Of a stretch of 64,000 nt of DNA, positions 22,359-50,975 are shown in pieces. The notes beneath the pieces were generated by a model. It saw only the letters and a program-made list of their open reading frames with translations. It had not been told where the DNA came from and did no database searches. The first letter of the stretch is position 1. Each line of letters begins with the position of its first letter. This DNA comes from Chlorops oryzae (taxonomy: Eukaryota; Arthropoda; Insecta; Diptera; Chloropidae), in contig CM035808.1 in NCBI GenBank assembly GCA_020466095.1, positions 68,891,957 to 68,955,956 on the forward strand, in the 5' to 3' direction. The position numbers and the translations under genes were made by a program.

Positions 22359-22359
22359 G

Positions 22360-25317: not shown

Positions 25318-25367
<50 letters not shown>

Positions 25368-30178: not shown

Positions 30179-30190
30179 GGTAGGAAAATT

Positions 30191-30640: not shown

Positions 30641-30651
30641 ATAAGGATAGG

Positions 30652-31212: not shown

Positions 31213-31213
31213 G

Positions 31214-33788
31214 GTTGTACCCATTTAGTAGAACACAAAATTAGGGTGAACCCGAATGTAGAACCAGTAAAACAGCTCTATTATCTCGTTTCGCCGGTAA
31301 TACAGAAATTAATGGATAAGGAGGTGGCAGATATGTTGGAAAAAGGAGTAATTGAAGTTTCTCACAGCCCGTGGGCTTCGCCGGTAGTAATGGTGAAGAA
31401 ATAGGATAATACCTATAGGTTTTGTGTGGATTATAGGGTGTTGAATAAAGTAACAGAGAAAGATAGTTATCCACTACCATACATTTTAGCTACACTAGAT
31501 AAATTAAGAGAAGCTAAATTTTTATCAAGCTTAGATATAAAATCGGCATACTGGCAGATTCCAGTCGCAGAGAATTCCAGAGCTTACACTGCTTTTACTG
31601 TGCCCGAACAAGGGCTATTTCAATTTAAAAGAATGCCATTTGGTCTGCACAATGCTCCGGCAACATGGCAGCGATTCATCGATAATCCTTTCCAAGCAAA
31701 TTTAGAGTCAAATGTTCTGGTCTATTTAGATGACATTATTATTGTGACCAATAATTTTGAACAGCACCTGGAAGTATTAAAAGCAGTGTTAAAACGACTA
31801 AGCGACGCCGGGTTACAATTAAATAGACGAAAATGTCATTTTGGCTTACCTCAACTAAAATATTTAGGGTAAATAGTCAACAAAGATGGGCTTCATGTAG
31901 ATCCAGGGAAGGTGGAAGCGATGCGTCAAATTCCAACACCCAGAAATGTGAAAGAGGTTTGAGCATTCACTGGTACAGTTTCGTGGTATAGACGTTTTAT
32001 TCCAAATTTTGCACAACTTTTACAGCCATTAACAGAGCTATTAAAGAAAACTAGGAAATTTAGATGGGAACAAGAGTGTGAAGATAGTTTTGCAAATGCA
32101 AAAAAAATGCTTGGTATCAGCACCGGTACTTACGTGTCCGGATTTTGAACGACCATTAACGATTCAAACCGATGCCTCCGATTTCGGCATAGGAGCTGTA
32201 TAAACACAGCACTTCGAGGAGGGAGAAAAGGTTATTTCGTATTTAAGTCGATCGCTAACAAAATGTGAGAGAAATAACTCCACAACAGAAAAGGAATGTT
32301 TAGCAGTACTATGGGCAGTGGAGAAGTTAAGACCCTATATAGAAGGCAGTAAGTTTACAGTTGTAACAGTCCATTATTCTTTAAAATGGCTGAATAATTT
32401 AAAAGATCCGTGTGGAAGATTGGCAAGATGGGCCCTAAAGCTACAACAATATGATTTCGAAATGATTCATAGGAAAGGGAAAGATAATTTAGTACCGGAC
32501 ATGTTGTCTAGGAGCGTACCAATAAAAGCCGAAATGCAATCAGAAAGGAGGGAGGAGACGTAGATAAGCAGAATGCGGAAGCGCGTAGAGGGTCAACCTC
32601 AACTTTTTCCAGAGTGGCGCATAGTAGGAAATGAATTGTTCAAGTATATTAAAAATAATCTAAATAATTTATTTGATGGGGCATTCTGTTGGAAGAGAGT
32701 AATAGGCAATGAGGAAAGGAAGGACCTATTATTATTATGTCATGACCACCCATTAAGTGGTCATATGGGGGTTAAGCAAACATTAGCACGAATAGCCGAA
32801 AAATTTTATTGGCCAAAAATGAAGCGCGATGTGGTTAAATATGTGAGGGAGTGTCAAGTGTGTCAAGCGGTCAAGCCTGATAATAGGAAGCCAGCGGCTT
32901 GCATGGTGGAACGGTCTTCTGATCTTGGGCCGTGGCAGATGATTTGTGTAGATCTGATTGGGCCTTTAGTAAGGAAAAACCAGGGAAATTTTTATATTTT
33001 AACAGTCGTAGATTATTTGACCAAATTTCCATTGTTAAATGCGTTAAGAACGGCCGGCTAAAGCTATCTGTAGATGCTTAGAAGAAGATGTTTTTTTTAT
33101 TATTTGGAGTACCAGAATCCATTGTCTGTGACAACGTGCCTCAATTTAAAAGTAGAGAGTTAGAGTCACTATGCGAAAAATATGGAGTTCACCTGAGATT
33201 CACGGCACACTATCACCCACAAGCAAATCCCGCTGGAAGGATAAATCAAATTATAAAAACTTCTTTACGGGCATATGTCTCGGAAAACCATCTCACCTGG
33301 GACATCAATTTGGCGAAAATTGGATGCTGCATTAGAACAGCACAACATGAAGTCCTAGGGACGTCCCCATATTTTGTGAACTTCGGGCGTAACATGGCTA
33401 TCTGTGGACAAACAGATTATCAGCGACAGATGATATTCGGACGGAGGGACGTGAGAGAAGGGTAGATGCGCTGAAAGGGTAAAGGGAACATGTAAAGGAA
33501 AAGTTAAAAGAAGCCAGTGCACAAGCAGCGCATACTTACAACCTTAGGAGAAGAGACGAACAGTTTTTAGAGAACGAGTTAGTTTGGCGTAGGCATTTTG
33601 CTCTATCGGATGCCGCTTCATATTTTTCAGCGAAATTAGCTCCAAAATTCGTAGGTCCATTTCGAATTCGAAAGAAGCTGTTAGGGTAGACATATCAACT
33701 TCAAGATGAAGATGGCAATGATAAGGGAGTTTGGAACGTGTAGGATTTGAAGCGATTTCAGGGGAATCGCCAAGTGGTTAACGGCTAG
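31214..33788 (+). pseudogene. int2 RT-RNase H-integrase
   Basis: The layout and most stops are those of int1 (RT 31426-31872 with VYLDDII; RNase H and HHCC integrase 32318-33465). An extra TAG replaces the W codon after RREET (32561-32563). One site in the integrase reads VCDNVPQF instead of the usual VCDNGPQF, next to the second catalytic Asp. The close match to int1 shows a recent duplication. Confidence 0.9.
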
Positions 33789-34015
33789 TAGTCACTCGCT
33801 AGAATGGGGAAAAAAAATTTAAAAAAAAAAATATATATATAAAAGGAAAAAAAACATATCAATATTTAGTATGTAGGCGTATTTTAATATTTGAAATTTT
33901 TTTTAGTTACAAAGTTGGGCCAGCGCTGTCGATCCTTCGACAATTTTTTTCCCTTTCCAATACCGTCCGAAGTTGTTTGGCTACCAAACAACTTCATAGG
34001 AGGAGGAGGTGGAGT

Positions 34016-35567
34016 TGTTATGGGCTCATTTTTTTTTAAACATCAGCCAGCTGAAAAGGGAGAAATATGAACATACATACATACATATAGTCGCGCATAC
34101 GGTCCAGCTGAACGGGCGAACATAGCTAAAAGAAGAAAACAAAACAACTTAGAGCTTAGATCAGCCTTGTTTACCAATCACTTACCTTTGAGGATGGAGT
34201 TTCGTTTTTATTATTTTATGATTTATTTATTTATCTTGATATTTTAGGTGATAGAAGTTTTTTTATTTATTTATTTTTATATTTATTTTATTCCACTACA
34301 GAAATGTGCTGTACACAATTTCTTTCTTTTCTAGGTAAATGTCATTTTCAATTCTTTCCTTTGACATTCTCTCTCTCTCTCTGTCTCTCCCTCTCGATCT
34401 TCGAAAGTGTTGCATTCTCTCTGCGAAAGCTTTCGAATATAAGGAGGGGGAACACGAAAAGTAACACATACAAAGATTGGATGTTTTCAGGATAAAATAA
34501 CATAATATAAATTAGAAAAATTATAAGCAGCGGCAGCCAATGACCTATTTATTAGTCAAATGAACAAACAGCTGATGAGAAGTAAACTACTGCGAGGGCG
34601 TCTCAAGAAGTGTGAGAAGCCATCGCAGTGGAAATTGTAACAAGAACAAGAGAAAGATCGAAAGGTTTACATCGTTGCTTTCGAACATTTCCCCACGCTT
34701 ATACTGACACCTTTCAACAGCCAAGTAAAAGCGTAAAACCATACGTCTGTGTATTTTGTGTCTTGGGCATGGTTATCAATGTATGAACCCGAATGTATTG
34801 AGATGTAATTGTAAGCAACACCAAGAAAATCGGTGTTATGATTTTCGCGGGAGTTGCACTGATTCGTTATGTCTAAGGGAGGCGTTCGGGGAAATGAGGT
34901 TACAATGAGTGAAAGCTTTTCGCCTAATTATTTTAAAAAAGATGTTTAGGGAAGAGTGAAAGTTAGTTAGTTTTCGAACTGTGTTTAGAAGTGTTCAAAA
35001 GTGAAAGTAGATCAGAGTCAGTGAAGAATAGTGAATTCGAGTTAAAAAATTATATCAGGAGAGTATTATTTGATTTGGTGGAATTGTTATTTAATAGTTT
35101 TCAATTTATGAATTTATTATTCTTTTCGTGTTTCCCTTCCAAATTCAATTGGTTTAATCCAAGTGTTACTGTTGTAAATTTATTTTCTTCTGCTCTATCG
35201 TGCCGAGCCCGTCTTTGGGGTTAATTATAGACAAACCATTTCGGTTGTGTCGGATTCCGTGGGAATCTAGCGTGTGAGCCTATTTCATTTATTTTCCGGC
35301 TCCAACTCGAGGCACCCTTCCAAACAGGGATTTTGTGGTGTACACGGGACTCCAGCTTGAACCAAGTTTAATCCCCCCCCCTCCACCTCCGTCGCCACTG
35401 AGAAAGCGGGAATTTATTGTTGTTTCGTCCGTCGCTAGTTTGTGGCGGAATAGATGCAACAACGGGACTCCAGCTTGTACCAAGTTTAATCCCCCCGTCT
35501 CCACTGAGAAAGCGGGAATTTATTGTTGTTTCGTCCGTCGCTAGTTTGTGGCGGAATAGATGCAACA
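34016..35567 (+). repeat. LTR3 of the Gypsy array, with internal duplication
   Basis: It is 1552 bp. It is longest because about 110 bp at its 3' end, from CGGGACTCCAGCTTG to GATGCAACAA, are present twice (about 35344-35462 and 35463-35567). Only the second copy is followed by the primer site. Confidence 0.9.
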
Positions 35568-36105
35568 ATTGGCGCCCAACGTTTGTGTAGTTGTGGTAGA
35601 AGCTGTGAACGGTTTTTTTGTAGTTAGAGGTTGCGTGTATTTGTTTGTCGCTATATAGAAACTGATCTGCGTTTGATTTCTTTTTTTTTAGTCAAGCAGC
35701 CGTGGAGACAATCAAAAAGCGTTGTGGAGAGTTCGGCTGTAGCAGAGCGAGAGACACGAGGGTCGAAAAATAAATTAACAGAGAAAGAAAAATAGCGCGG
35801 TGAGTTCGTTCTGGTTTGAAAATTCATTTTTTTTTGAGAAATTGTTAAACTTTTTTTTTTTATTTTAACAAAACTCTGAATATTAAATAATTAGATTTTT
35901 TATTGATAAATATTTAGACAGGGTTTTTAATTTTTTTTTCACAATTACAATTTTTTTTTTAAATACATATATTAAAGAAGGAAAAAAATACTTTATGGAT
36001 ATTAATCGCTTAAACCAGGAGGAAGTTATGTATGAAATACAGGATAGGGGATTGATAGTAGGAACGGTAAATAGCATGCGAAATACAGACTAGGGGCTTG
36101 AAAGT
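35568..36105 (+). pseudogene. int3 leader and gag start
   Basis: The primer site TTGGCGCCCAACG is followed by the leader and ATG at 35996 (MDINRLNQEEVMYEIQDRG). At about 36080 a second, slightly different copy of the AAATACAG(G/A)CTAGGGGCTTG segment appears, and then the errantivirus-like leader begins. Roughly 735 bp of gag (compare int2 26893-27630) are missing; int3 resumes at 49713. Confidence 0.8.
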
Positions 36106-36162
36106 AGTTTTGAGCCTTGGTTCGTCTCCAACTGAAAGTCAGTCGAATCCCGGCTGCGCCAA
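36106..36162 (-). repeat. 57-bp errantivirus leader copy outside the 3' LTR
   Basis: It matches 48879-48935, which is the primer-site end of the internal region. Its presence on the outer side of the left LTR is not expected for a simple insertion. Confidence 0.85.
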
Positions 36163-36941
36163 TGTTGAAGTATTTTCCGCTGTATTCCCGATTGAATACA
36201 ACGTCTGAATACTTCAGTGCGAATAAACAAAATGAAAGGACACCAAATAAGTTATTTTCAAATCTTTTATTAAGCTAAAGCCCTTATTGTCTTTTCACAA
36301 ATTAGAACCTTATAGTCTCCTAACTGACACTCGAAACTTCCCTAAACTCTTACAACACTAAGATCCACACTCTTCCGCTTTTGCCACTGTTGAGTACATA
36401 CGTAAGAGTTGAGATCTCGCAAACTGCTTCTCGCTAAGTCCTTTTCTCATTCTCGATCGTTGTCTTTTATAACACAAAAGTGTCAATGCTGCATAGTCGA
36501 TTTCCCAATCAATGCTAGTTGAATATTGCGTAGTTGCAGGTAGAACTTTCCAGAATTGACCTGCGTGTACCATCAATTTGCTGTTGTTGTTGTTGTGCTC
36601 GGCTTAAATTTGCCGACTTGCAATCTTAACTCAAACAGGTGTTTCAATAGTTCTTATTCTCGAATTTCCTTGTATATGGAAATTCGCTTACGACGTTGGC
36701 TTACGATTTGCTGTTGTTGTTGTTGTTGTGCCCATTCACCGTTCCCGTCGTGTGCTAAAAGTGCTCGAGTTACAGTTTCGGTCTTGCAGTACGGTGCGGT
36801 TGTCTTTGTTGTTGTTCACCGTTGCTTGGGCTGGACGTTTAGCTTGCTCATGAGTTTGTTGCTGTTTCGTAATGCTGCACTTTTGAGGTGATCAACGGTA
36901 AAAATGTAAAATGCTCGTGAGTCAAGGGTTGACTCACAACA
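36163..36941 (-). repeat. Errantivirus-like 3' LTR
   Basis: TGTTGAAGTATTTTCC...CTCACAACA. It is nearly identical to 48936-49712 and includes a (GTT)n-rich stretch near 36580-36730. Confidence 0.92.
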
Positions 36942-37416
36942 CCCCTCCCCCTTTTAAAGGAGTCGTGAGCATCGCGACATTAAACGTGTTGAAGTTTGTG
37001 AACGGCTCTGAGCATTCCCTCCCCCTTTTTAAAGGAGTCGCTGTAAATGTGATTACACGCGACTTCTAGGTGCTCTGGTGTGTTGATGATCGTTTTGTGT
37101 AATCTAAGGAAATGATGTACTGCTGATGGCTGCTGATGTACTGCTTATTTGAGTTGTTCGATCTTAGTGTTATATTAAAAGAGTGGCAGATATTTCAAAT
37201 CAAACAATCTTATATTTAAGACATTGTTTACTTTTCTTGTTTATATCTCTTAAATCATAAAATCAATTTTCTCATCCTTTATAAAATTATATATTTCTTA
37301 TATTATAGACCTTGTTTAATTTTCTTGTTTCTGTTCTTAATTTATAAAGTTTACTTATTGCATAACTGATTTTTATTTTTATTTTTATAATACCCTCACC
37401 AATATATTAGGTGTAG
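36942..37416 (-). promoter_or_regulatory. Polypurine tract region with two purine tracts
   Basis: Directly inside the 3' LTR the minus strand reads AAAAGGGGGAGGGG (36955-36942), the expected plus-strand DNA primer. A second very similar tract (CCCTCCCCCTTTTTAAAGGA on the plus strand) lies near 37018-37040. The rest is AT-rich with no gene. Confidence 0.7.
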
Positions 37417-38696
37417 TAAAAAGAAATCCATTATTTTTGCATTAAATTGAGGGCTTTATTTAAGATAGTTAGAATGACCCGATTTAGGTCAAATAAGCGC
37501 CGTTTTGCTCGATAACTTGTTGCCATTTTAAAGGTAATTTCATTATGCCTCTCTCATAGAAGCCCTCGTTCCTATTAGCAAAAAATTGAGACAGTCGAAT
37601 TTCAGAAGCCTCTCTTGAAGCGAATGTTTCACCAGCAAAATTGTTCGCCATGGACAGGAACAGATGGTAATCACTTGGTGCCAGGTCCGGACTATAAGGT
37701 GGATGCAGAAGAACCTCCCAACCAAACTCCCGGAGCTTCTGGCGAGTCACTATCGATGTGTGTGGCCTGGCGTTGTCCTGATGGAACACAATTCCTCTCC
37801 TATTGGCCAAAGCTGGCCGCTTATGGGCGATTGCTTCCTTCAGACGGTCCAATTGTTGACAGTAGAGTTCCGAGTTAAGAGTTTTGCCGTATGGGAGCAG
37901 CTCATAGTAGATAATTCCCTGCCAATCCCACCAAACACACAGCAAAACCTTCCTGGCCGTCAATCCTGGCTTGGCCACCGTTTCCGCCGGTTCACCGTGT
38001 TTCGACCACGACCGTTTTCGCTTGACGTTGTCGTAAGTGACTTACTTTTCATCACCAGTCACCAACCGCTTCAGAAATGGGTCGATTTTGTTGCGGTTCA
38101 GCAGCGATTCGCAGATGGAAATTCGGTCTATGAGGTTTTTTTTGCGTTAACTCGTGTGGCACCCATACATCGAGCTTCTTTGTGTATCCAGCCTTATTCA
38201 AATGGTTCCAAACGGTTTTTTTGTGCAATCTTTAGCTCTTTTGCAATCGAAACAGTGCTAACATGACGGTCGGACTCGATAATTTCCATGATTTTATCGA
38301 CATTTTCGACAATTGGCCTTCCAGTGCGTGGTGCATCCTTGACATCGAAGTTACCGGAACGGAATCGACGAAACCAAAATTGCGCATGATTGGCTGTTAC
38401 AGTATCAGGTCCATAAACGCTATTCACATTTTCAGCCGCCTGGCTTGCGTTTTCTCCCTTATCGAAGAAAAACTGTAAAATGTAGCGAATTTTCTCTTTG
38501 CTGATGTCCATCTTTGACAAGCTCTCAAACAAAACTGAATCAATCAATCAAAGAAGTGTCGAAAAAGTTTTTTTAGTAGGAACTGTCATCTTTCTAATGC
38601 CCCCTAGCGGAACACGATCGGACTTATACAACGCGAGATACAGATAAATAACGCCATCTATTAGAAAAATAATGGATTTCTTTTTACTACACCTAA
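37417..38696 (-). mobile_element. mariner element, second type, in the errantivirus-like element
   Basis: The 32-bp inverted repeats start TTAGGTGTAGTAAAAAGAAA and are flanked by TA (37415-37416, 38697-38698). It is 1280 bp long and unlike Himar1. It resembles the mauritiana/cecropia branch; the subfamily is uncertain. Confidence 0.92.
37484..38547 (-). pseudogene. mariner transposase (DD34D), broken
   Basis: The N-terminal part (from MDISKEKIRYILQFFFDKG) has a paired-type DNA-binding region. The C-terminal part has FHQDNARPH and SPDLAPSDYHLF, with 34 residues between the two aspartates. The first Asp is in a GDEK motif, directly followed by a stop (near 38045). Two extra bases in poly-A runs (near 38217 and 38143) shift the frame. 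The protein ends QNGAYLT. The terminal repeats are still intact, so trans-mobilisation is conceivable. Confidence 0.9.
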
Positions 38697-38768
38697 TATA
38701 TAAAATTTAATAGCTACAAACATTATTTTCTGCGGTTTTCGTAAATACATCTCATGCTTCTTAAACAA

Positions 38769-39610
38769 TTATTTTACTCGTTTTATTTTTAGTTCGTTCG
38801 AAATTCCTATGGTTAATCTGAAGGATTTACCATTTAGCTTAACCAGCTCTCTTTTTCTATTTTTATTTTGTCTCTTTTTTCTTAGTACCTGCATCATTTG
38901 TTTCAATATTTCCATTTCTTCTGCTGTCAGTTCTTGGTCTGTTACATTAAGGTCATTTTTATTCCAATTTTTTATAAGGTTTCCAAAAAACATTCTCGTA
39001 AATTCTTTGCTTTCTTTTTCTAACGAGATTGTGTTCTCCCAGTCTTCATTTCCATCTTTTACTTTTTAAAAAAAATATTCTGCAAAGTGCAGTGTAAATA
39101 TCCCACAGTCAAGCATGTTTTTTTGTTGCGGGCATTTCGGCCAAATGAATTTATTGTTTAATAATTTATCGTCTTTTAATTTTTTTGCGACATTCTCAAA
39201 GAATTAGGCTATGTTTGTGTATATCTCAATGTAATTGTGTGGATTTAATGAGTCTAGGATATATACTAATTGATTCCGCACAATTGCCAACATCCAGTGG
39301 TTTTTCACACATATGAGTAATAACCAACTTTTTATTTTCCTCGCATCGATGTTTTTTATAATTGTTTTAAATCGCAACTCAGCTATGCTTTCCGTAGCCT
39401 CTACTGCCGCTTTTATAGCTGCGTACGTGAAAGAATTAAAAATGTGCACTTCTCCTGAAATAGGATCATGCCTTTTTAATATCCAATCAAAAATACATTG
39501 ATATGAGTATCACCCAGCCACTGGTTGTCAATTAAATCAATATACTCTTTTTTAGTTATCTCCGTTGCCTGTTTTCCGATCATGTAAGAACAAAATTGCT
39601 CATTGGCCAT
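38769..39610 (-). pseudogene. Ulp1/SENP-like C48 cysteine protease carried by the LTR element
   Basis: The ATG is at 39610 (MANEQFCSYMIGKQATE). The conserved blocks are NQWLGDTHIN near 39510; KNHWMLAIV with the catalytic His at 39299-39297; YILDSLN with Asp at 39254-39252; and PQQKNMLDCGIF with the Gln and the catalytic Cys at 39107-39105. His-Asp and Asp-Cys spacings (15 and 49 residues) fit Ulp1-type deSUMOylating proteases. A charged lysine-rich tail follows to 38769. It is broken by a frameshift near 39490 and in-frame TAA codons at 39206-39204 and 39068-39066. It lies between env and the 3' LTR, on the element's coding strand. An adenain-like protease is the main alternative. Confidence 0.85.
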
Positions 39611-40037
39611 TTTTTGATTTTTATTTTGATTTTTTATTATTTCTTCTTATTTGATCAGAGCCGAGAAACAATGAAGCAAAGTTAATAATAAAAATTTGAA
39701 TTTGGAAAACTGATTAGATATTCTCACTTGTCGACTTGCGCCTGGATGTATTTGGATCGTTGCCCTTTTCATTTTTCCTTTCTCCAGGTGCTTCTATAAG
39801 AATAAAATAATTTTTATTATTGTGCAAAGAGTCGCGTCTTTTTTATACCTTTCTTTTAATATTCCCTCACTGCTGCGGTGTCAATATCGAATGCTATGCG
39901 TTCATGCATTTCGTTTTATATTTTATTCGTTTAATTGAAAGATAAACAAAATTTCGTTTATGCCTTAAATACATTTCTTAGATATGAGTTTCTGTTTATT
40001 GCTTAAGTCGGGTATGTGGTTGGTAATATACGAGGGT
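39611..40037. other. AT-rich spacer between env and the C48 gene
   Basis: No gene is recognisable. A-rich runs on the minus strand precede the C48 start. Confidence 0.5.
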
Positions 40038-41527
40038 CTAAATTAATGTTCTTGACTTTAACGTGGAGCGCATGAAACTCCTGTTGTTTTTTCTGTTTCT
40101 TTGTATCGTTTCAGAATTAATATTTTGGCTTTCTCTTGCCATTTCCTGTTTAATTTCTACTCTTACCGATCTTCTTTTAAAAATAAAATATAATCCTATT
40201 AACCCTCCTATAATTATCAATAGAAGTGTGCCACTAATGCCGTATGATATGTTGCGATGAAAAATCTGCTCCTTTATATATGGTCTATTTTTAAAACTAT
40301 TTACTATTATGTCTTCGAAAATTATTGGTGTGTTATTAAGATTTAACATTTTATCAGAGTAAAAATATTTCTCTTCCATCATGGTACGAGAATTGAAAAA
40401 ATTTTCCTTTTTAATTGTGATACTGCAATTCGAAAAAGTTATAAGGGCGTTATTGGTTAATGTTATATTTCTTTTGTCGCAAGTTTGATTTATAGTTACT
40501 TTTTTAGCGTTTTTCACTAATACGGTTCCTTCATCGATATACTTGATAAATGTTTTGTTATTGAAAATGAAATTACAATTATCCTGGATAGCACAATGCT
40601 GACTTCTTTTTTAATCCTTTAGAATGGCGTTTTCTTGGAATGAGAAAATATTTCCGTCTATTTCAGTCACTAACTCATCATTTGCCATTATCTCGAAAAA
40701 TTCCTTATTAGGGACTGGAGTGATTAGGTTGACTGCTGTCTGTATTAGGTTTCGGGGGACCTTAATTAAAATTATTAATGAATTTTGTGCGTGGGACAAT
40801 ATCCCGACTCTAAGTAATTTCAATGTAAAGAAATCTACTTTGAATTTGTCTATCTCTTCCGGAGTTAAAATGCTTGGATATTTTATACCGCTTTTTGCTG
40901 CTGCTACGCTATCCTGAATCAGATTTATTTTGTTTTCGATACTATTTGATTTAAACATTTGATCAATGAACCTTTGGTGGTTTGAGATATTTATATTTTT
41001 CGAGTCTATTGTGTTAAAAAATTGTCTGTCTTGTTCTATTGCTGCTTTTAGTGCTCCTAGGGTGGCGTTGAAATGATTGTTAATGGCTACCTCCTCGTTA
41101 AGGCCCTCTATTGCGTTGTGATAATTTTCTAATACTGTTGTAAGGTGGTCTTCTATTTCCTGTCTATCCTGGTCGTCCATGACCCCGAATAATAATTTGG
41201 TTGCTGTGCCTATTGCGTTAATTAACCCTCTACTTCGGCGTTTATGTACGAATATAGGGGTTATGGACTGCAACTTTAGTCTAATTGTTTTGATTTCGTT
41301 TATTAACAATAATTTGTTGTAAATGGTTACTTTATTTATGTAGTCTTCCATCGAGTTGAGCATGCTTTCAATCTCTTGAGGGTGGATTATGTGCAGAATG
41401 GTGTATGCATCCTTTACGATTTCAGTGTTGAACATGTGAATCTCAATAAAGCCTTTTTGTTCGTTAATTGGGGACACCAACAGACTCCCATAAATGGTTG
41501 TGATGAAAAAAACGATGACCGGAATTA
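40038..41527 (-). pseudogene. F-type envelope gene (env), one internal stop
   Basis: An open stretch without ATG begins after TTTTCAG (about 41530), a likely splice acceptor; errantivirus env is made from spliced RNA. It opens with a hydrophobic signal-like segment (VIVFFITTIYGSLLV). The frame 41480-40611 has a furin-type site RRSR at residues 81-84, directly followed by a hydrophobic fusion-peptide-like segment, as in insect errantivirus and baculovirus F proteins. After one in-frame TAA (40613-40611) the same frame continues (40517-40038) with N-glycosylation sites, a membrane span at residues about 93-113 and a basic tail. The stop would cut the anchor off. Confidence 0.85.
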
Positions 41528-41799: not shown

Positions 41800-42540
41800 T
41801 TATTCAACCCATTTCGGTTGGTTTCGGCGTGCACCAGTAAGTCGCTTTATGTGAGGTATTAGAATTTCATGCACAAAAATATATTGACCTTTGTTGCTTA
41901 TTGCATTTGCTCGTTGGTCTCTAATTTCATTCACTATTTTTCGCATATTTATGTGTCGACCTTCATGTAAGGTTGAAAACGCTACATCTAGTGCGACGGC
42001 AGTACATGTCCTGTTAATGCCCGCTTTACAGTGTATCACTAATTTTGGAAAATCGTTTTTGTCTTCCGCTAGCTTTTGACTTTTCCTCACTTTGTGCCAA
42101 AATTCTAATAGGGGTATGGGTTTTGTTGTTTGATTGTCGGGCCAAGCTGTGAATTGCCAATGTTCAATTAAACGGAAATCTTCATTTGTTTGGTTTGTTA
42201 TTTTCAATTTACTTTGAATGTAATGACGTTCTGCTATTTTAGATATTGTTTCTATTTTGAATTGTGTGCAGCTAAAAAGATTTCCTTCATTTTTTTCCCC
42301 AGTATTGATAACACCCTTTTTCTTCTATCCTAGACAACATGGCTATAACGAAACAATTTTGTTCCTAAATCATTTGCCGGAAATCACTAGCTGTGTTTGC
42401 TAGTGGATTTTGCGTGGCGATATATTTATTCGGACAATGAACTCCATTTACGTAATTTGCGTGAATGTAATCGGAGCTATTTGTGTTTTTATTCGTACTC
42501 GATTTTGCTCGAAACATGGCACGTCCGCATATCTGTTTTT
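41800..42540 (-). pseudogene. Protein tyrosine phosphatase domain carried by the LTR element
   Basis: A nearly complete classical PTP domain is legible on the element's coding strand. Blocks in order: KNRYADV (42540-42520), DYIHANYVNG and YIATQNPLANTASDF in a second frame, FVIAMLSRIEEKG, then an open stretch. The open stretch holds AWPDNQ (WPD loop), VIHCKAGINRT (Cys codon 42030-42028, Arg six residues on), IRDQRANAIS and NKGQYIFVHE (Q loop). All key active-site elements are there. Breaks are in the front half: a TAG upstream of KNRY, one frameshift after it, a TAG at 42367-42365 where Trp is expected, and another frameshift after QYWG. It lies between integrase and env; the end of the pol frame overlaps its start. 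Confidence 0.9.
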
Positions 42541-44494
42541 GGACTAATTTTTGATGACTTGGATTTTTGGGTATTTAAGTTGTTTTTAGCCAGATTTTGG
42601 TGCTCTGTTTTTAACCCTTTAACGCCTAAGCTATTAAATGACTTTTCTACATTACTTTTTGTCGTGTTTTCATTTTTTTCTGAAAAAACTGCGCAGACAT
42701 TTTCCTGATTGTCGTGAAAAATTTTTATTAAATTCTTGTGAAAAGTTTTCTCTCTTCCTCTAATTTTAAGTCTTACATTTGTTGTAGTCGGTTCTGAGAT
42801 CACTTCGTATGGTCCCTCCCAAACTGGAGAGAATTTATTTTTTCGATTTTGGTTCTTTAACCAGACTTTGTCTCCGAGTACAATATCTCTCTCTTTAGAA
42901 TTTTTGTCATAATATTTTTTGGATTTCTCTTTTGCCGCTTTATGGTTGTACCTCACTATTTCGTAACTGCGTTGAATTTGGTATTGCAAAATTTTGCTAT
43001 AATCGTCTGAATTGTATACTGGACTTGGTTTTTTCTTTAACTTGAATGGAATTTCGAATTCAAAGCCGAAAAGTGTTCTACTGGGAGTTTGTTTTGTTGT
43101 TGTGTGGACCGTATTATTGTGTACGTGCATCCCATGATGTAGCCATTCATCCCAATTTGTGCCATCCTCGTTGACAAATTTTCGAAGAAATTCTGCAAGA
43201 GGCCGGTGACTCCTTTCGAGAGCACCATTGGCTTGTGGATGGCACGGAGAAGTTTGAGATTTCTTTATTCCAAGAATTTTACAAACTTCTCTAAACAAAG
43301 TTAGCATGAAATTTGTTCCGTTGTCCGTTACTAAAGCTTTTGGAATATTAAACTTTGAAGTTACTTCATTAGAAAATGCTCGTGCAACCGTTGAGGCTTC
43401 TGCATCAGGTATGGCTGCGCAAATGAAATATTTTGAGAAATCGTCCAAAAATGTCAGAATGTATTTGTTATTCCTAGCTGATATGGAAAGTGGACCAACT
43501 ATGTCCATGAAGACTTTGTCGAATGGTCTATGGGGTGTGTCTGTTATCGTCATAGGCATTTCCTCCACCCGTGAACTTTTGTTTTTTGGACAAAGCTTGC
43601 ATGATTCGATATATGATTTGATTTGGCGATGCATGCCTTCCCATTTGTATTGCTTTCTGATTCTTAAGTAAGTTTTTAAATATCCCTTATGCCCTGCAAT
43701 TGAGGTATCATGAAAAGTTTTCAGAATTTTTTTGATATCTAATGAGTCTGTTAGGAAGACCGCGGTGTCTTCTCCCTCTAAGGGTCCTTTGATTTCATCG
43801 TTTGCGACCTTTTCTAAAGCTCGGTTTTTTGCTCTTGTTATTACACTTACTTTATTCTCTGCAGGTGTTATTCTGCTCAGAGCGTCTGCATTTAAGTTGC
43901 TTTTCCCTGGTTTGTAACAAATTTCGAAATCATACTCTAATAATTTAAGACGGAAACGTCCTAATCTAGAGTCCTGATCCTTCAAATTAGCTATTCCTTT
44001 TAATGGTTTTTGGTCAGTATAGATTTTAAAATGTTTTTCTAAAAGATACGTTCTAAAGTTTTTAACTGTCCAAACTACAGCGAGAAATTCCTTTTCGATA
44101 GTGGAGTATCGTTTTTCAGTGGCACTAAGTGCTCTGCTGGCGTAGTAAATTGGGAGATCTTTTCCTGGCTCTCCCTGGGACAAAACTGCTCCTAGTGCCT
44201 CATTACTAGCGTCGGTTGTTAAAATGAACGTTTTTTCAAAATCTGGGTAACTATGATAAGTATTGGTGGACTGGTTATAGCGATTTTTAATTGTTCCATT
44301 GCCCTTTGACATGCGATAGACCACATGAATTTTGATTCATTTCGCAATAAGTTTGTTAAGGGCAGACAAATTTTTGCAGCATCGGGTATGAATTTCCTAT
44401 AACAGTTAATTAACCCCAATAATGCCTGTAACTGTTTTATATTTTTCGGCGCCTGTATGTTTTTCACGCATTCTATCTTTCCTGGATCTGGCAA
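42489..44494 (-). pseudogene. Errantivirus-like RNase H and integrase
   Basis: A 611-codon open frame (44324-42489) starts in RNase H (LTTDASNEALGAVLSQG) and continues with the full integrase. It has an HHCC finger (AGHKGYLKTY... CKLCPKNK), FMDIVGP, VTDNGTNF and HPQANGALERSHR for the D,D,E triad. The C-terminal GDKVWLKNQNRK and WEGPYEVI form the GPY-type module. The overlapping frame 44494-44219 (LLGLINCYRKFIPDA) is the RT thumb/connection, one frame away. This is the best preserved part of the element. Confidence 0.9.
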
Positions 44495-45182
44495 AACTCC
44501 TGCTTCTGAACATTTGTGTCCTAAATAAATTACCTCTTTCTGCAGAAAATTGCATTTTTTCTGTTTGCAATTTTAAATTATGCATTCTGAGCACCTCTAA
44601 GACTTTTCTTAGGCGGACTTCATGTTCTTTTAAGTTTCTGGCCTAGAAGACGATGTCATCTAAATAAACGAAACAGTCAATACCTTGGAAGCCTGTTAGA
44701 ATATTGTTCATAATTCTTTGAAAAGTTGCCGGAGCTCCCGTTAGACCGAAAGGCATCCTCGCAAATTCAAAATGTCCTAAACCAGTGCTGAAGGCCGTTT
44801 TTTCTCTATCCTTCTCATTTACCAAAACTTGGTGGTAGTCTCTGGCTAAATCTAACGTAGAGAAATAACGACTCTATCCGAACTGATCCAGGATTTCGTC
44901 AATACACGGAATTGGAAAAACCTGTTTAATAGTGATTTCGTTTAGTTTTCTGAAATCCACCACAAGTCTCCATTTTTTCACGCCATCTTTCCCAGCTTTT
45001 TTCGGGACTAAAATTTTTGGCGAGTTCCACGGCGATTTTTTCTGTGTGATAATGCCATCGTCAAGCATTTTCTTCACTTGTGTATTAGTTTCTGTTTTGT
45101 GTTGTTCGGGCAACCTATATTGTCTCGAATTTATAGGCGGATGTTCTGCTATTGTGGGGATTTCATGAGCTAAGACTGTCAT
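44495..45182 (-). pseudogene. Errantivirus-like reverse transcriptase
   Basis: The first part (45182-44874) has the RT fingers (SPWNSPKILVPKKAG, WRLVVDFRKLNEIT). The second (44825-44643) has FARMPFGLTGAPATFQ and the active site YLDD at residues 54-57. Stops or frameshifts lie at about 44873-44826 and at 44643-44645. The order and spacing are normal for Ty3/Gypsy. Confidence 0.9.
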
Positions 45183-45277
45183 GTAAGATAATTGGTCTCC
45201 CTGCAGGTGAGAAATATCGGAGTAGTCATAAAAAAATTTTTTCGTTGAATTGCTCTCCTCTTCATTTAGGTTTTTAT

Positions 45278-46018
45278 CTAATTTAATTGTTTCCGTTCCG
45301 CGTTTTCTTCTCTATTTATCTGATTTATTTTTGATATATCTAATTCATCGAACTCTGACCCTGGTTCGAAATCTAATTCAGTTTCCTCATTTATTTGTAC
45401 GGGTTCGCTAGTCGTATTCATTATTGGTTCATGGCTTTTGCCATTTTTTACCACTGTGAGTGTATTTCCTACGAAGACGTTTGGCATTTTTTCCTTTTTA
45501 TGGATCACTAGACTCCCTTCTAGCCCTTTAATACACACTTCCACTATTTTTGCTTCCCTAGCATTTATCGTAATTGACTCTGCAATACAAATCTTTTTGC
45601 TAGGCGTTGAAGTCAACAATGGTAGTGTTGCCATTCTTCCACCTAGATCAAAAACTACTTCCTTTTCCACACAATCTATGATTGATCTATTCCATAGTTC
45701 GTCCCTTCCTAAAAGTCCATCTGCCGGAATCTTGCTTCCTGCTGGCAATACTTGCAATTTAAACCTTAAATCTGGAATTTCGGAATGTGAAACTTCTGCT
45801 GTCCCTATACTATCAATTTTTTCTTCAAACACACCCACAAGATGACTTATCTCAGTTGTATTAATATTTAGGTCCTTGAGTGCTTCTATTTTAATTAAGC
45901 TCGTGTCAGAACCTATGTCCACTAACAAGGTAACTTTTTCATTTATAGCCTGTCTAGATGGAAGAACTACAAACGTGTCGTGTGAATGCTGCTTTCCTTT
46001 CACCAAGGTCCTTTTCAC
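45278..46018 (-). pseudogene. Errantivirus-like aspartic protease
   Basis: VTLLVDIGSDTSLI is the D-x-G-type active site, followed by GLLGRDELWNRSIID, the expected second protease block. It lies between the zinc-knuckle gag and the RT. The glutamate-rich C-terminal tail leads towards RT. The start codon of the mature unit is not defined. Confidence 0.8.
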
Positions 46019-46278: not shown

Positions 46279-46923
46279 CTAATAGCCTTGACCAGGCCGT
46301 TGGGAGTTTCCCTGTAAATTACAAAATCTCGCTATGTGGCCGTGCTGTGAGCATTTAAAGCATTGCATATTTCTAGGCCGTGCGTTTTGAGTCTTTTTCG
46401 ACTTGTTAGCAGTGTGTGTTTCGGCATTGGAATTGTTTTGTCTGCCTTCGCTGTTATTATTTTGAGCCCTGAATGGGTTGAAATGTTGTGGTGTGTTTGA
46501 ACTGAAGTATTGTGTTCTGTTTTGTGGTTGGGTGTCAGTTTGTTGGCCTCTTTGCCTAAGGGTGTCACAAAATTTATTCTTTACATGCCCTCTCAATTTG
46601 CATACGTTGCAAAATAATTTTTCAAGTCTTCCAAAACATTTATTCTCTGAATGTCCCTTTTTTCCACAGAATTTGCAAATTATGCTATCACGACTGCGTT
46701 TTTGTTCTGTTTTCCCGCATTTCGCTATTTGCTCATGTCCGTATTCGAAACATACATTGCAATAAGGAGTATTCCTTCTTTGCAGGCAAATATCGCGTGT
46801 ATGGCCCGCAATGTTGCAAAAAGAGCATAAAATTGTTTGTGCAGGTGTACTAATTTGACTTATAAAATTATTTGTATGAACATTTATATTTTCTGCCTGC
46901 AGCCCTTCTGCGTTTTCTGCCAA
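46279..46923 (-). pseudogene. Errantivirus-like gag nucleocapsid with five zinc knuckles
   Basis: Five CCHC-type knuckles are visible. CSFCNIAGHTRDIC starts at residue 33, CNVCFEYGHEQIAKC at 55, CKFCGKKGHSENKC at 83 and CNVCKLRGHVKNKFC at 105. CFKCSQHGHIARFC lies near the C-terminus. They should bind genomic RNA. Known insect errantivirus gags generally have no or few knuckles, so five is unusual. The frame is separated by a stop from the capsid part upstream. Confidence 0.85.
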
Positions 46924-46929
46924 TTTTAT

Positions 46930-47580
46930 TCAAAATGTGAGTGGTTTGTCTCTATGTCCTTCTAATCGGAGTTGCATGACCCGATCTTTTATACCGAAAA
47001 TGAATTTATTTTTGGCTAGCCTATTATATTCACTAAGAGCTGATACTGATTCTGAAGAATTCCATGTTTCTCTAATCAATTTTTCGGCTTCTTTCAGCAA
47101 GGCCGCGATCCTTTCCCCAAATGATGATGCTTTTTCATTTAAATATTCAGCACAGCTTTCTCTTTCAAATCTGATTGTGTCTAAACTTCTGTGCCTTAAA
47201 AAATTTTTCTTTATGAAATTTCCGAGTTCATCTAAACTGTTAAAATTTTTCTGGCTGGCTTTTATGTAAGCTGATCCCGATAGTCTTTGTTTAACGCATT
47301 TTATGGTGTCTTGCGCGGCCATGTTTTGTGTTATGATTTTTAGTAATTATAAGCCTGTGATGAATTTGTCTACTTCAGAGCTTAATTTTGGGTGTTCTTG
47401 GCCAGAAAAAATTGGCACTAGACTAACGACCTTTTTCATGACCTCATCTGCTGGAGTAGAGTTTGCCATTGTCACTGTTACTGTGGGTACTAATGAAACT
47501 CGGGTGGATGGTTGTTCTGTATTTTGAGCTGTAGGTTTTTGGGTGGTGACCTTCACGAGTTGTGTATTAAATTCTTCCAA
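46930..47580 (-). pseudogene. Errantivirus-like gag capsid region
   Basis: Two frames (47580-47347, 47322-46930) together resemble a Ty3/Gypsy capsid. They contain KKVVSLVPIFSGQEHPKLSS, then LGNFIKKNFLRHRSLDTIRF and RETWNSSESV. A break lies at about 47335. The sequence joins the nucleocapsid after a stop near 46926. Confidence 0.75.
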
Positions 47581-47714
47581 AAATGTTACCGGAGTTGTAT
47601 TTATTTCAACTGGTTTGTTTTGAGTTTTGTTTAAAAACTCTGTAGGGGCAACTGGTGCCAGTGGGGGGCCTGTGGTATTTGGTTTTTTGTGGTTGGGGAA
47701 TTTCCTGTTTGCTC

Positions 47715-48260
47715 TTAAGCGGGAAGCGATTGTTTTGTTATTGTTGGGCTTGGCATCGGTGAGGCAGTGTATACTGTCTTCAACTCCTTTTTTAAGTTTG
47801 TAATTTGATTTTTAAGTCTTTTTACCTCCTCTTCCCTTTCTCTAAGAACGGCCCTACCTTTTTCTAAGGTGTCCGTTAACCCTTGCCCTACCGCCTTTCT
47901 TAAGGCTTCCCGAAGAACGTCGTTTTCTTTTTCGGATTCCTCTGTTAGGGTGTTACTATGTTCTATTTGTTCTTTTAGCTTTTTACAACTTTTTGACAGG
48001 TATTTTACAGTTTTTTCTAAGTTGACTATTTTGTCTGTTTCGGCGTTTGTATTTACTGAATTTTTTACCTGATTTATTAAAAATATTGCCTCCTCTATTT
48101 GAGAAAATTGGCCTAGCACACGTTGATATTTAATTAACTGTAGAATTTCTTTGCTTAATTTTGACTCATGCAATAACTCTTTCGCTTCTTACAAAATTCT
48201 GCTGCTGTCAGCTTCTGATTGTGCGACCTTCTGTCTGAGACTTTCTAATTCTTCTTCCAT
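47715..48260 (-). pseudogene. Errantivirus-like gag N-terminus, coiled coil
   Basis: The ATG at 48260 (MEEELESLRQKVAQSEADSS) is followed after 23 codons by an in-frame TAA. The frame then stays open to 47715 with heptad-like L/I/V, K and E patterns (for example KEQIEHSNTLTEESEKEN and REREEEVKRLKNQITNLKKE). It is a long coiled coil, plausibly for gag assembly. A proline/threonine-rich linker (47714-47581) leads to the capsid. Confidence 0.7.
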
Positions 48261-48935
48261 AAGTTTAGAATGAACACGGAACAAGTCCGCTTAAAACACA
48301 TTTAAAAAAAAACGGACTTTTTGCAACAAAAATATTAATTCAAATTTGTTTTACTCACCATATTTATAGTTGATTGCTGCATATTGGTTCTTCCTTCTGT
48401 GACTTCCTGCTACCGTTGAATTTTACTTTTCACTTTAAAGGTATTAATTTGTGACTCTTTTAAATAATTCTTTGAAAAATGTTATTTGCGAGAATGTTCT
48501 AAACGTCTGAGTCGGTAGATCTTATGGACACGAGCTTTTGCTAATTCGGTTGATGATAACCACCTTTTTAAAACTTGCAAGGTTCCGCTTTAGCTTTGCA
48601 TTCGTTATTCCACACTTTCTACCGTACAGATGTATTCTTCTACTACAAGGATTAAAACTTTTTGAAGAAAAATCGGCAAGTTACGTTTAAAAACGTCTCT
48701 TGTCAATTTTGACTTGGTCTGAGCTATCTTATTTGTTTCTGCCGTATGACTTATGAATTTGAGTTTTGCTTCTTCGGATGATGATAACCACCTTTTTAAA
48801 ACCTGCAAGGTTCCGCTTCGGCTTAGTTCGTGTTTTCGTATGTCACACTACAAAAACCTTTAAGTATACTCTTTTTAAAGTTTTGAGCCTTGGTTCGTCT
48901 CCAACTGAAAGTCAGTCGAATCCCGGCTGCGCCAA
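48261..48935 (-). other. Errantivirus-like leader with direct repeats and primer site
   Basis: No gene. A 52-bp segment (ATGATAACCACCTTTTTAAA core) occurs at 48545-48596 and again at 48773-48824 with few changes. The primer site TGGCGCAGCCGGGATTCG lies on the minus strand at 48934-48917, next to the LTR. Confidence 0.75.
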
Positions 48936-49712
48936 TGTTGAAGTATTTTCCGCTGTATTCCCGGTTGAATACAACGTCTGAATACTTCAGTGCGAATAAA
49001 CAAAATGAAAGGACACCAAATAAGTTATTTTCAAATCTCTTATTAAGCTAAAGTCCTTATTGTCTTTTCACAAATTAGAACCGTATAGTCTCCTAACTGA
49101 CACTCGAAACTTCCCTAAATTCTTACAACACTAAGATCCACACTCTTCCGCTTTTGCCACTGTTGCGTACATACGTAAGAGTTGAGATCTCGCAAACTGC
49201 TTCTCGCTAAGTCCTTTTCTCATTCTCGATCGTTGTCTTTTATAACACAAAAGTGTCAATGCTGCATAGTCGATTTCCCAATCAATGCTAGTTGAATATT
49301 GCGTAGTTGCAGGTAGAACTTTCCAGAATTGACCTGCGTGTACCATCAATTTGCTGTTGTTGTTGTTGTGCTCGGCTTAAATTTGCCGACTTGCATTCTA
49401 AACTCAAACAGTTTCAATAGTTCTTATTCTCGAATTTCCTTGTATATGGAAATTCGCTTACGACGTTGGCTTACGATTTGCTGTTGTTGTTGTTGTTGTG
49501 CCCATTCACCGTTCCCGTCGTGTGCTAAAAGTGCTCGAGTTACAGTTTCGGTCTTGCAGTACGGTGCGGTTGTCTTTGTTGTTGTTGACCGTTGCTTGGG
49601 CTGGACATTTAGCTTGCTCATGAGTTTGTTGCTGTTTCGTTAATGCTGCACTTTTGAGGTGACCAACGGTAAAAATGTTAAATGCTCGTGAGTCAAGTGT
49701 TGACTCACAACA
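48936..49712 (-). repeat. Errantivirus-like 5' LTR
   Basis: The 777-bp partner of 36163-36941. High identity suggests modest age. The right end CTCACAACA abuts int3 gag at 49713. Confidence 0.92.
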
Positions 49713-50400
49713 CCAGCTAATTATGAGAATTTATTATGGACAGAAATAAGGCGTAGAACACAAGGAGCAGAGGAGTCAATAGGAGTTTATGTGTCAGTGA
49801 TGAAAAATTTATTTAGGAGATTTAAATATGGAGTCCCGAAAGAGCAGATGCTAGGAATAATAAGGGAAAAATTAGCACCATTTTACCAGGCACAAATTGG
49901 ATTGGCGGAGCCAAAATCTTTGCTAGAGTTAGTTCAACTTGGTAGCAAAATTGATAGTTTAAAGCCTCAGTGGAATTTTATGTGCCACCGCCAAACCACA
50001 AAAATAAAGCGCTCTTAGAGCCGGATTTGGCGTACGTATGCGCGGTGGAGGACGTAGCACTAGTTAACAGTCAGAGCACGGATTCGGATAGTAGGGGAAA
50101 GATTTATGCGTCTGGAAATCAAACAGGAGTTAGATGTTATAATTGTAAGAAAATAGGACATGTGTCAGCTAATTGTCCCGATAGGAAATGTTACGGGTGT
50201 GGCAGAAAATGCGAAACTAGGCGTACTTGTCCTCATTGTAAAAATATTCAGTCGAATTCAAGTCAAACAAAATAATCAGGCTAGGGCGTCAGGAAGTTAC
50301 CAGAATAGGCAAAATGATAATGGTACCAATTCGGCTTCTACTTTGGAAGCGTCGGGAAACGACAGTGGAACTCCTGGGGTCGCAGGACAGGAGTCCCAAT
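49713..50400 (+). pseudogene. int3 gag, 3' part
   Basis: It resumes at AGCTAATTATGAG, the equivalent of int2 27630. It includes CYNCKKIGHVSANC and CYGCGRKCETRRTCPHC. Frameshifts occur at about 49960 and 50272. It is more diverged from int1 and int2 than they are from each other. Confidence 0.85.
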
Positions 50401-50413
50401 AAATAAGGATAGG

Positions 50414-50974
50414 TTGCCTGCGAACAACCAGCTGGCTTATGTAGGGGTATTTAACCACATCACGAATAGGAATGAAGAAAATAGTAATTTCATCGTAGGA
50501 GCAACAGAAGTAGACAAGAGACCGTTCTTGAATGTGAAAATTTCTGGCACAGTGGTAAGGGCATTATTGGATTTAGGAGCGACGCGTACAATTATAAGTT
50601 TAGAATTGTGGAAACGCATTCATCTTCAGACTAATAGGGATATAGAGGTTTCAACCATGAAGATAGCCTTAGCCGATGGGAAAATAATAAATACAATAGG
50701 ACAAATTACTTTAAATATAGAAATAGAAAGGAAATCTCTTGCTATTAAGTGTCTAGTATTAGAATTCTTGCCTCAAGAGTTGATTCTTGGAACAGATTTT
50801 TGGATTAAAGCCGATATTATACTGGATATAGCCAGGAATGAATGGAGGTTTTCGGAGCAAGCAGAAGTGGCTACCCTTAATACGATTATAGGGCACCCTG
50901 AGTTGAACATTAGGGAAAAGGAGGCACTTGAACAGATTATTTCTAACGAATTTAGGGAAATATCGAATGGTTAA
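50414..50974 (+). pseudogene. int3 protease with altered active site
   Basis: It is homologous to 21798-22358, but the active site reads LLDLGATRTI instead of LLDSGATRTI. It ends at the same TAA after REISNG. Confidence 0.85.
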
Positions 50975-50975
50975 G

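What the first reader, a model, noticed from the sequence alone, without database searches (positions are those of the whole stretch)
41800..42540. Protein tyrosine phosphatase domain inside an errantivirus-like LTR element
Between integrase and env, on the coding strand of the element, a nearly full-length classical PTP domain is readable: KNRY, WPD loop, HC-x5-R with Cys and Arg, and Q loop. Phosphatase genes are known in polydnaviruses and baculoviruses, but I know of none as a stable part of a Ty3/Gypsy element. The catalytic half is clean while the front half has two TAGs and two frameshifts. It could be a captured host gene that helped the virus, or a cellular retrocopy that fell into this copy only.
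Basis: partly seen in the sequence, partly recalled or inferred. Interest (0 to 1): 0.93.

Follow-up and report, generated by a model that had tools for sequence, protein, structure and literature searches.

The report
Retroviral Pol carrying a tyrosine phosphatase
In this genome, dozens of copies of an errantivirus-like endogenous retrovirus lineage carry a tyrosine phosphatase domain at the end of the replication polyprotein, and many also carry a predicted SUMO-protease gene; the phosphatase likely alters signalling or defence in the cell while the element copies itself.

Summary
A classical PTP domain (PF00102) lies between integrase and env on the element's coding strand; in this copy its front half is broken.

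It is not a one-off insertion. Two searches of the window's genome list 191 PTP places, and 94 of 122 scored integrase copies have a listed PTP just downstream. Integrase and PTP share one open frame in 24 of 36 loci examined (15 of 15 picked for long frames, 9 of 21 others), so the PTP is a C-terminal domain of Pol. All 33 near-complete PTPs examined keep the Cys-x5-Arg signature. Constraint is clear between lineages and weaker than for integrase. Ten representatives form one clade with an integrase-PTP fusion from another public record.

Two further genes go with it: a predicted Ulp1/SENP-type SUMO protease downstream of env (broken in the window) and, in many copies, a conserved antisense ORF between PTP and env (absent in the window). 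One sub-lineage lost env and the antisense ORF by a shared deletion but kept PTP and protease, which argues for an intracellular role.

Function is inferred: likely a Pol-packaged active phosphatase. Host species, substrate and activity are unknown. I rate it a new variant of a known kind: enzyme capture by Ty3 elements.

The parts
48936..49712 (-). 5' LTR of the element (element runs on the minus strand)
   Evidence: 98% identical direct repeat of the 3' LTR; ends TG..CA next to a PBS-like motif
48925..48934 (-). primer-binding-site-like motif TGGCGCAGCC directly after the 5' LTR
   Evidence: sequence and motif search; which tRNA was not tested
46279..48173 (-). gag region in pieces (48173-47715, 47322-46930, 46923-46279), the last with several CxxC zinc-knuckle-like motifs
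   Evidence: ORF list, by eye; PF16588 zinc-finger match E 6e-7 in 46923-46282
44643..46018 (-). protease / reverse transcriptase region in broken frames
   Evidence: ORF list, RT-like motifs by eye; no Pfam match in the two pieces scanned, 46018-45281 and 45182-44877
42489..44324 (-). RNase H and integrase part of Pol, one open frame that ends just inside the PTP region
   Evidence: RT_RNaseH E 3e-35, H2C2 E 1e-17, rve E 2e-15
42287..42574 (-). front half of the PTP domain, in three frame pieces (KNRY 42543-42451; 42574-42368; 42364-42290)
   Evidence: PF00102 E 0.005, 7e-12 and 0.011, pieces searched apart
41800..42324 (-). rear, catalytic part of the PTP domain, open frame (WPD, HCKAGINRT, Q-loop)
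   Evidence: PF00102 E 7e-31; 240 distinct PDB sequences matched by the 135-aa ORF, best LAR
40038..41480 (-). env in two frames (41480-40611 Baculo_F-like; 40610-40038 with a C-terminal hydrophobic stretch, by eye)
   Evidence: PF12259 E 1e-5 for the first, nothing significant for the second; ORFs
38769..39646 (-). broken Ulp1/SENP-type (C48) SUMO-protease gene downstream of env
   Evidence: PF02902 E 3e-7 (39203-39069) and 0.005 (39509-39207, below the curated cut-off); the outer pieces 39646-39479 and 39065-38772 did not match C48; full-frame relatives E 8e-14 and 2e-12
37402..38701 (.). mariner-like DNA transposon inserted into this copy downstream of the protease gene
   Evidence: terminal inverted repeats 37402-37462 / 38645-38701; transposase-like ORFs by eye
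36942..36955 (-). polypurine-tract-like motif directly before the 3' LTR
   Evidence: sequence
36163..36941 (-). 3' LTR

Best explanation
The tyrosine phosphatase domain is a fixed C-terminal part of the Pol polyprotein (RT-RNase H-integrase-phosphatase) in a large lineage of env-bearing Ty3-type endogenous retroviruses, and it likely works as an active enzyme that is packaged with Pol and removes phosphate from host or viral tyrosines inside the cell where the element copies itself. Shown: one open frame through integrase and PTP in many copies, conserved catalytic motifs, one clade of the PTPs sampled, constraint on the protein between lineages, and linkage to a predicted SUMO-protease gene and an antisense ORF. 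Inferred: that the domain is active, that it is made and packaged as part of Gag-Pol, whether protease frees it from integrase, and its target. The most plausible target is host tyrosine-kinase signalling that opposes the element, because env-less copies keep the domain, which points to a step after entry. The neighbouring SUMO protease would act in parallel on SUMO-dependent transposon silencing. The window copy is a decayed member: its RNase H-integrase part is one open frame, but most other genes, including the PTP front half, are broken.
For: Genome-wide copies: 428 and 564 first-look candidates for two PTP queries, 191 distinct listed places (some may be cellular). 94 of 122 scored integrase places have a listed PTP within 2.5 kb downstream on the same strand. 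44 of the 150 matches lie in open frames of 500 aa or more and 10 in frames of 1500 or more. Integrase and PTP share a frame with an open linker in 24 of 36 loci: 15 of 15 chosen for long frames and 9 of 21 others. Two loci show RT (by eye), RNase H, integrase and PTP in single frames of 1160 and 1265 aa. Near-complete PTPs: 33 of 40 places, 25 of them without stops; Cys-x5-Arg signature in 33 of 33, HCxAGxxR in 30, WPD in 31, KNR[YF] in 33. dN/dS: median 0.14 between lineages (107 pairs, dS saturated) and 0.32 in 30 close pairs. Trees of PTP and integrase mostly agree in 31 loci. Ten element PTPs plus P0001, an integrase-PTP fusion from another record, form one clade, 98/97. The P0001 model folds as a PTP; best PDB match PTPN9/MEG2, E 4e-30. 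Env-less copies L022, L023, L026 and L034 share one deletion junction; all four keep a stop-free PTP and a protease match.
Against: No activity, expression or packaging was tested. The window's own clade has HCKAGINRT (S to K, G to N in the P-loop), the L024 clade HCMAGVGRT, L006 and L039 have SPD for WPD and YC for HC, L032 has HCNAEINR, so activity may vary. PTP changes faster than integrase (median dN 0.26 against 0.11 between lineages). Very close pairs show weaker constraint (14 pairs, median 0.62, maximum 1.51), and the single pair L027/L028 has dN/dS 1.09. 28 of 122 integrase places had no listed PTP; the lists are truncated, so whether some lack it is unknown. In loci not chosen for long frames only 9 of 21 keep the joint frame, as expected of old copies. 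Being in frame with Pol, the PTP need not be useful to persist for a while.
Confidence: 0.6

Rival explanations
1. The PTP serves as a phosphotyrosine-binding or chromatin-targeting module on integrase, like the chromodomain at the end of integrase in chromoviruses (recalled), with catalysis secondary or lost.
For: It sits where chromodomains sit, 147-222 nt after the integrase segment in the 24 loci with an open linker; some clades have altered P-loops.
Against: The Cys-x5-Arg signature and KNR[YF] are kept in 33 of 33 and WPD in 31 of 33 near-complete PTPs, which a pure binding role would not need.
Confidence: 0.17
2. The PTP acts on the element's own proteins (for example phospho-Gag or integrase) to time assembly or integration, not on host defence.
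For: Fusion to Pol would put it in the particle with Gag and integrase; it is kept in env-less copies.
Against: No direct evidence; the company of a predicted SUMO protease suggests host targets.
Confidence: 0.15
3. Passenger: one capture event fused a host PTP to Pol and it has been carried along without a function of its own.
For: Single clade of the element PTPs sampled; faster change than integrase and weak constraint in very close pairs.
Against: Open frame and catalytic residues persist between lineages whose synonymous sites are saturated, dN/dS about 0.14.
Confidence: 0.06
4. One-off retrocopy of a cellular PTP in this copy, or a chance neighbour.
For: The window copy alone is broken and could look like a pseudogene.
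Against: 94 of 122 scored integrase copies have a listed PTP downstream; same frame in 24 of 36 loci.
Confidence: 0.02

Closest known systems
Errantiviruses / insect env-bearing Ty3 (Metaviridae) elements
   Same: LTRs, Gag, Pol with RNase H and integrase, Baculo_F-type env downstream
   Different: C-terminal PTP on Pol, a predicted SUMO protease after env and an antisense ORF; in the insect ERV paper PMC12992720 the words phosphatase, SUMO and accessory do not occur (term count in the main text only)
Orchid Ty3/Gypsy elements with an AlkBH5-like m6A demethylase domain (PMC9289625)
   Same: A Ty3 element lineage that fixed a captured enzyme domain with conserved catalytic residues; there activity was shown in vitro (passages)
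   Different: Plant host, different enzyme; there the domain lies in the element's ORF2, here in the integrase frame
Bracovirus (polydnavirus) PTPs
   Same: Classical PTPs with a shared YIHAN motif; Cotesia-type rows are their neighbours in the tree, 93/89, not starred
   Different: Encoded by DNA viruses of wasps (PMC3573978, PMC4553618, passages), not fused to Pol; sister relation unresolved (p-AU 0.213 for the alternative)
Cellular PTPN9/MEG2 and receptor-type PTPs
   Same: Fold and motifs; best PDB fold match of the fusion P0001 is PTPN9, best sequence matches of L030 are receptor types S, epsilon, LAR
   Different: At most 44% identical to L021 among the 120 proteins listed; no membrane or receptor part in the Pol frames read
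Transposons with C48/Ulp1 proteases, e.g. oomycete Cryptons (PMC3212892)
   Same: Mobile element carrying a Ulp1-family protease as an additional protein (passages)
   Different: Tyrosine-recombinase DNA transposons, not LTR retroelements
Antisense additional ORFs of plant LTR retrotransposons (PMC7264820)
   Same: A conserved ORF on the opposite strand between pol and the 3' LTR (passages)
   Different: Different hosts; no sequence relation tested; here it sits between PTP and env

Membership tests
Classical protein tyrosine phosphatase (PF00102) | Whole-domain profile match | tested here: met
   E 6e-68, 2e-70, 4e-74 for three relatives; the window in pieces, best 7e-31
Classical protein tyrosine phosphatase (PF00102) | KNRY, WPD, HC-x5-R | tested here: met
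   KNR[YF] 33, WPD 31, Cys-x5-Arg 33 and HCxAGxxR 30 of 33 near-complete copies; the window has all three, in pieces
Classical protein tyrosine phosphatase (PF00102) | PTP fold | tested here: met
   Model of the relative P0001, pLDDT mostly above 90 over the PTP part, PTPN9 E 4e-30; the window protein itself was not folded
Classical protein tyrosine phosphatase (PF00102) | Phosphatase activity | not testable with these tools
   needs a bench assay
Ty3-type LTR retroelement (Metaviridae) | LTR pair, PBS, PPT | tested here: met
   PBS and PPT by motif only
Ty3-type LTR retroelement (Metaviridae) | RNase H before integrase in one Pol | tested here: met
   RT_RNaseH, H2C2, rve in order in one frame
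Errantivirus | Baculovirus-F-type env | tested here: met
   PF12259 just above the cut-off, 24.9 against 24.1 bits; relative L021 28.9 bits
Errantivirus | Place in the RT/integrase tree with gypsy, ZAM and others | not tested
   no reference errantivirus sequences were fetched
Errantivirus | Gag without zinc knuckles and tRNA-Ser primer (recalled) | tested here: inconclusive
   Gag here has several CxxC knuckle-like motifs by eye and one zinc-finger match, which speaks against; primer tRNA not identified
Ulp1/SENP SUMO protease (C48) | C48 profile with His-Asp-Gln-Cys | tested here: met
   Window pieces E 3e-7 and 0.005; relatives E 8e-14 and 2e-12; PDB best SENP7, E 1e-9; residues by eye
Bracovirus PTP | Nested among or sister to bracovirus PTPs | tested here: inconclusive
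   93/89, alternative not rejected, p-AU 0.213; only three such rows, two of them unnamed

The most novel reading that the evidence does not exclude
A lineage of insect-type endogenous retroviruses has assembled a host-control kit: a particle-borne tyrosine phosphatase at the end of Pol, a SENP-like protease that strips SUMO from the piRNA silencing machinery, and an antisense-encoded protein of a new family; the phosphatase shares its source with bracovirus PTPs.
Probability: 0.25. Interest if true: 0.95.

Novelty: new variant of a known kind. Interest (0 to 1): 0.87.

Why it matters
I know of no Ty3-type or retroviral Pol that ends in a tyrosine phosphatase (recalled), and the listings of the ten answered paper searches showed none; the searches that paired phosphatase terms with retroelement terms were made, the others had other aims. 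If active, the element would bring its own signalling enzyme into each cell together with integrase. The linked predicted SUMO protease is striking because SUMOylation is required for Piwi-mediated silencing and for transposon repression in Drosophila (passages of PMC8733420 and PMC7676866): elements that erase SUMO would be a direct counter to piRNA silencing. Together they give a testable case of an endogenous retrovirus with accessory genes against host control, and a possible source or sink of the polydnavirus PTP family.

Tried and rejected
One-off retrocopy and chance: rejected by the genome counts. Scans of viral contigs for the window PTP, the window RNase H-integrase part and a PTP alignment: 0 relatives in three scans. 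The 135-aa window PTP found nothing in the protein collection (4 candidates); a full-length relative found 2709, of which 120 are listed. Antisense ORF: no significant Pfam match (one at E 0.8), no PDB match better than E 0.15, none in the protein collection (2181 candidates), none in PHROGs. A claim that bracovirus PTPs are the sister group was considered and not made: support 93/89, alternative p-AU 0.213; in the larger tree a long-branched nematode row (P0119) sits between them and the element clade, and it was left out. Naming the host was not attempted. Some genome places without a listed PTP could not be read. The integrase search had 6259 candidates and only 122 were scored, so the true share of PTP-bearing relatives is open. 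Structure prediction of the window's relatives was not attempted, because loci from the genome search are not on that tool's list of allowed inputs; the fold job used protein P0001 aligned with other proteins and one open window piece.

Choice and dropped rows: the 15 loci were chosen for long open frames, so counts of open frames lean upward; those follow the ranking with a few skipped. In one search, 15 of 55 loci that repeat a place held in a longer locus were dropped (40 left). In one search, L001 and segments with a stop, under 85% coverage or with a length not divisible by three were dropped (25 PTPs left). In one search, L001 and loci with more than one stop in the PTP or low coverage were dropped (31 left). 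In one search, 3 of 40 places had no integrase match and one had opposite strands (36 left). In one search, 62 of the 120 listed proteins and 10 of 40 element PTPs were used. In one search, 136 of 138 listed protease rows were typed, 121 of 148 listed antisense rows (the rest mostly fragments of a place already typed; the fragments at C2:69699106-69702270 were dropped whole).

Full report
Observation. The window's element runs on the minus strand from a 5' LTR at about 48936-49712 to a 3' LTR at about 36163-36941 (98% identical repeats; 13 substitutions in 778 aligned bases, K2P 0.017), with a PBS-like motif after the 5' LTR and a polypurine-like motif before the 3' LTR. In order it holds gag pieces, broken RT, a 611-aa RNase H-integrase frame, the PTP region, a Baculo_F-type env in two frames, a broken Ulp1-type gene and a mariner-like insertion. 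The PTP's catalytic part is one open frame, 42324-41800, with PF00102 E 7e-31; the front half is in three pieces that each match the same profile, two of them weakly. Nothing else in the window matches the PTP (next E 4.6). The one addition is a third frame change between the Pol frame and KNRY.

Is it only in this copy? No. A search of the window's own assembly (442 Mb, 1044 contigs) with the 135-aa piece had 428 first-look candidates, of which 150 were scored, all 150 significant. A second query from another lineage had 564 candidates; 152 matches, 150 rows used. The two lists give 191 distinct places; some of these could be cellular genes. A search with the integrase of a relative (L028) had 6259 candidates, 122 scored; 94 of those 122 have a listed PTP within 2.5 kb downstream on the same strand (71 by the first list; 23 more by the union).

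Pol fusion. In one search the open frame around the PTP is at least 500 aa in 44 of 150 matches, at least 1000 in 20 and at least 1500 in 10. In the loci fetched, 24 of 36 with both domains in order have integrase and PTP in one frame with an open linker of 147-222 nt. That is 15 of 15 loci that I had chosen for long frames and 9 of the 21 others. Two loci show RT (by eye), RNase H, integrase and PTP in one frame of 1160 and 1265 aa, both running off the fetched start. In the window copy that frame is broken.

Conservation. Of 40 distinct places, 33 have a near-complete PTP and 25 of these have no stop. The Cys-x5-Arg signature is kept in 33 of 33, HCxAGxxR in 30, WPD in 31 and KNR[YF] in 33; L006 and L039 have YC and SPD in place of HC and WPD, L032 HCNAEINR. 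dN/dS (Nei-Gojobori) is 0.14 at the median between lineages (107 pairs, synonymous sites saturated, so rough), 0.32 for 30 close pairs and 0.62 for 14 very close pairs; one further pair lies between these classes (0.37). Integrase gives 0.05, 0.14 and 0.29 for the matching classes. Within clades the PTP ratio is 0.33 to 0.42, except the single pair L027/L028 with 1.09. So the PTP is constrained as a protein but changes faster than integrase.

Origin. Trees of PTP and integrase for 31 loci mostly agree in their clades, with one group sorted differently (PTP puts L036, L038, L006, L039 together and L031, L032, L053, L055 together; integrase puts L038 with L053 and L055, and L031 and L032 with L036, L006 and L039), as recombination would do. 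Against proteins of a public collection, ten element PTPs form one clade, joined by P0001, a protein from another record (98/74, 98/97). P0001 itself carries the integrase C-terminal part upstream, 66% identical over 65 residues to L028, so the fusion is not a private feature of this assembly. Its model is confident over the PTP part and matches PTPN9/MEG2 best. Three Cotesia/bracovirus-type rows (P0007, P0013, P0061; the label is my inference from one Cotesia name and recalled sequence character) are the neighbours in the smaller tree, but the support is 93/89 and the alternative is not rejected, p-AU 0.213. In the larger tree these three, a long-branched nematode row (P0119), P0001 and the elements stand on one side of a branch (97/92) and 57 cellular-type rows on the other.

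Accessory genes. A Ulp1/SENP-type gene lies downstream. In the window it is broken; two relatives have full frames of 296 and 304 aa with C48 E 8e-14 and 2e-12, and the best solved relative is SENP7. A genome search had 833 candidates, 137 scored. In the lists, 72 of 191 PTP places have a listed protease place within 8 kb downstream on the same strand, against 0 upstream and 0 on the other strand downstream. Between PTP and env many copies carry an ORF on the opposite strand of about 180-250 aa; eight sequences of three versions align with 25 invariant columns. Of 121 typed places, 73 have a listed PTP within 3 kb, all 73 on the opposite strand and downstream of the PTP; 48 have none listed. 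Its dN/dS is 0.20 and 0.33 in two classes (17 and 19 pairs). It matches no known family in the libraries searched. The window copy lacks it: the PTP-env gap is only about 0.3 kb.

Env-less copies. L022, L023, L026 and L034 match L030 up to the same point after the PTP and resume at the same point beyond env, with a 16-nt overlap, so one deletion most likely removed the antisense ORF and env and was then copied. All four keep a stop-free PTP and a protease match, the latter split over two frames in L023. Within these four the PTP dN/dS is 0.36 (6 pairs). The protease genes of three of them are far apart from each other (mean dS 1.2, 3 pairs), so that part has likely been exchanged between lineages. 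The retention suggests, without proving it, that PTP and protease serve steps inside the cell.

How it likely works. The domain is predicted to be made as the end of Gag-Pol, carried in particles with integrase and active on phosphotyrosine in the cell where reverse transcription and integration happen. The partner protease would remove SUMO, and SUMOylation is needed for Piwi-mediated silencing in Drosophila (PMC8733420 and PMC7676866, passages seen). Apart from that literature, this paragraph is inference.

Literature. PMC12992720 (insect ERVs) was searched for terms in its main text only: phosphatase 0, SUMO 0, accessory 0. Precedents seen as passages: an enzyme domain in orchid Ty3 elements (PMC9289625), antisense ORFs in plant elements (PMC7264820), C48 proteases in Cryptons (PMC3212892), bracovirus PTP families (PMC3573978 and PMC4553618). 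Papers on plant mobile domains in Gypsy elements (PMC5418596) and on Ty3 elements of sex chromosomes (PMC9025612) were also seen as passages; none of those passages reports a PTP in an element. The ten answered paper searches showed no Pol-PTP fusion in their listings; subscription papers are mostly not covered.

Verdict. A real, stable and unusual Pol architecture: a new variant of the known habit of Ty3 elements to fix captured enzyme domains. Function remains to be tested.

Noticed in passing
window 38769-39646 (-): Broken Ulp1/SENP-type SUMO-protease gene downstream of env; relatives elsewhere in the genome have full frames.
   Followed up: yes
L021 2304-3053, L028 4234-4785, L030 4001-4582 (all -): Conserved antisense ORF between PTP and env without a known relative in the libraries searched, present in many copies but not in the window's copy.
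   Followed up: partly
L022, L023, L026, L034 against L030 3879 / 5925: One shared deletion removes the antisense ORF and env, giving an env-less sub-lineage that kept PTP and protease; the protease genes of these copies differ strongly, so they have likely been exchanged.
   Followed up: partly
window 36106-36162: About 50 bases of PBS and leader sequence are repeated beyond the 3' LTR, so the outer end is not a simple insertion; perhaps a tandem or recombined copy.
   Followed up: no
window 37402-38701: Mariner-like element with inverted ends inserted in this copy.
   Followed up: no
window 18487-36083 and 49715-55243: Several 88-99% identical copies of another LTR-type element, nested and in tandem; the PTP element lies between pieces of them.
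   Followed up: no
G000 C3:75503703-75542094 and C3:16542460-16551733: Small clusters of the antisense ORF without a listed PTP within 3 kb; could be tandem elements or the ORF on its own.
   Followed up: no
window 55698-55993: Short tandem repeat array, copies offset by about 76 bases or half of that.
   Followed up: no
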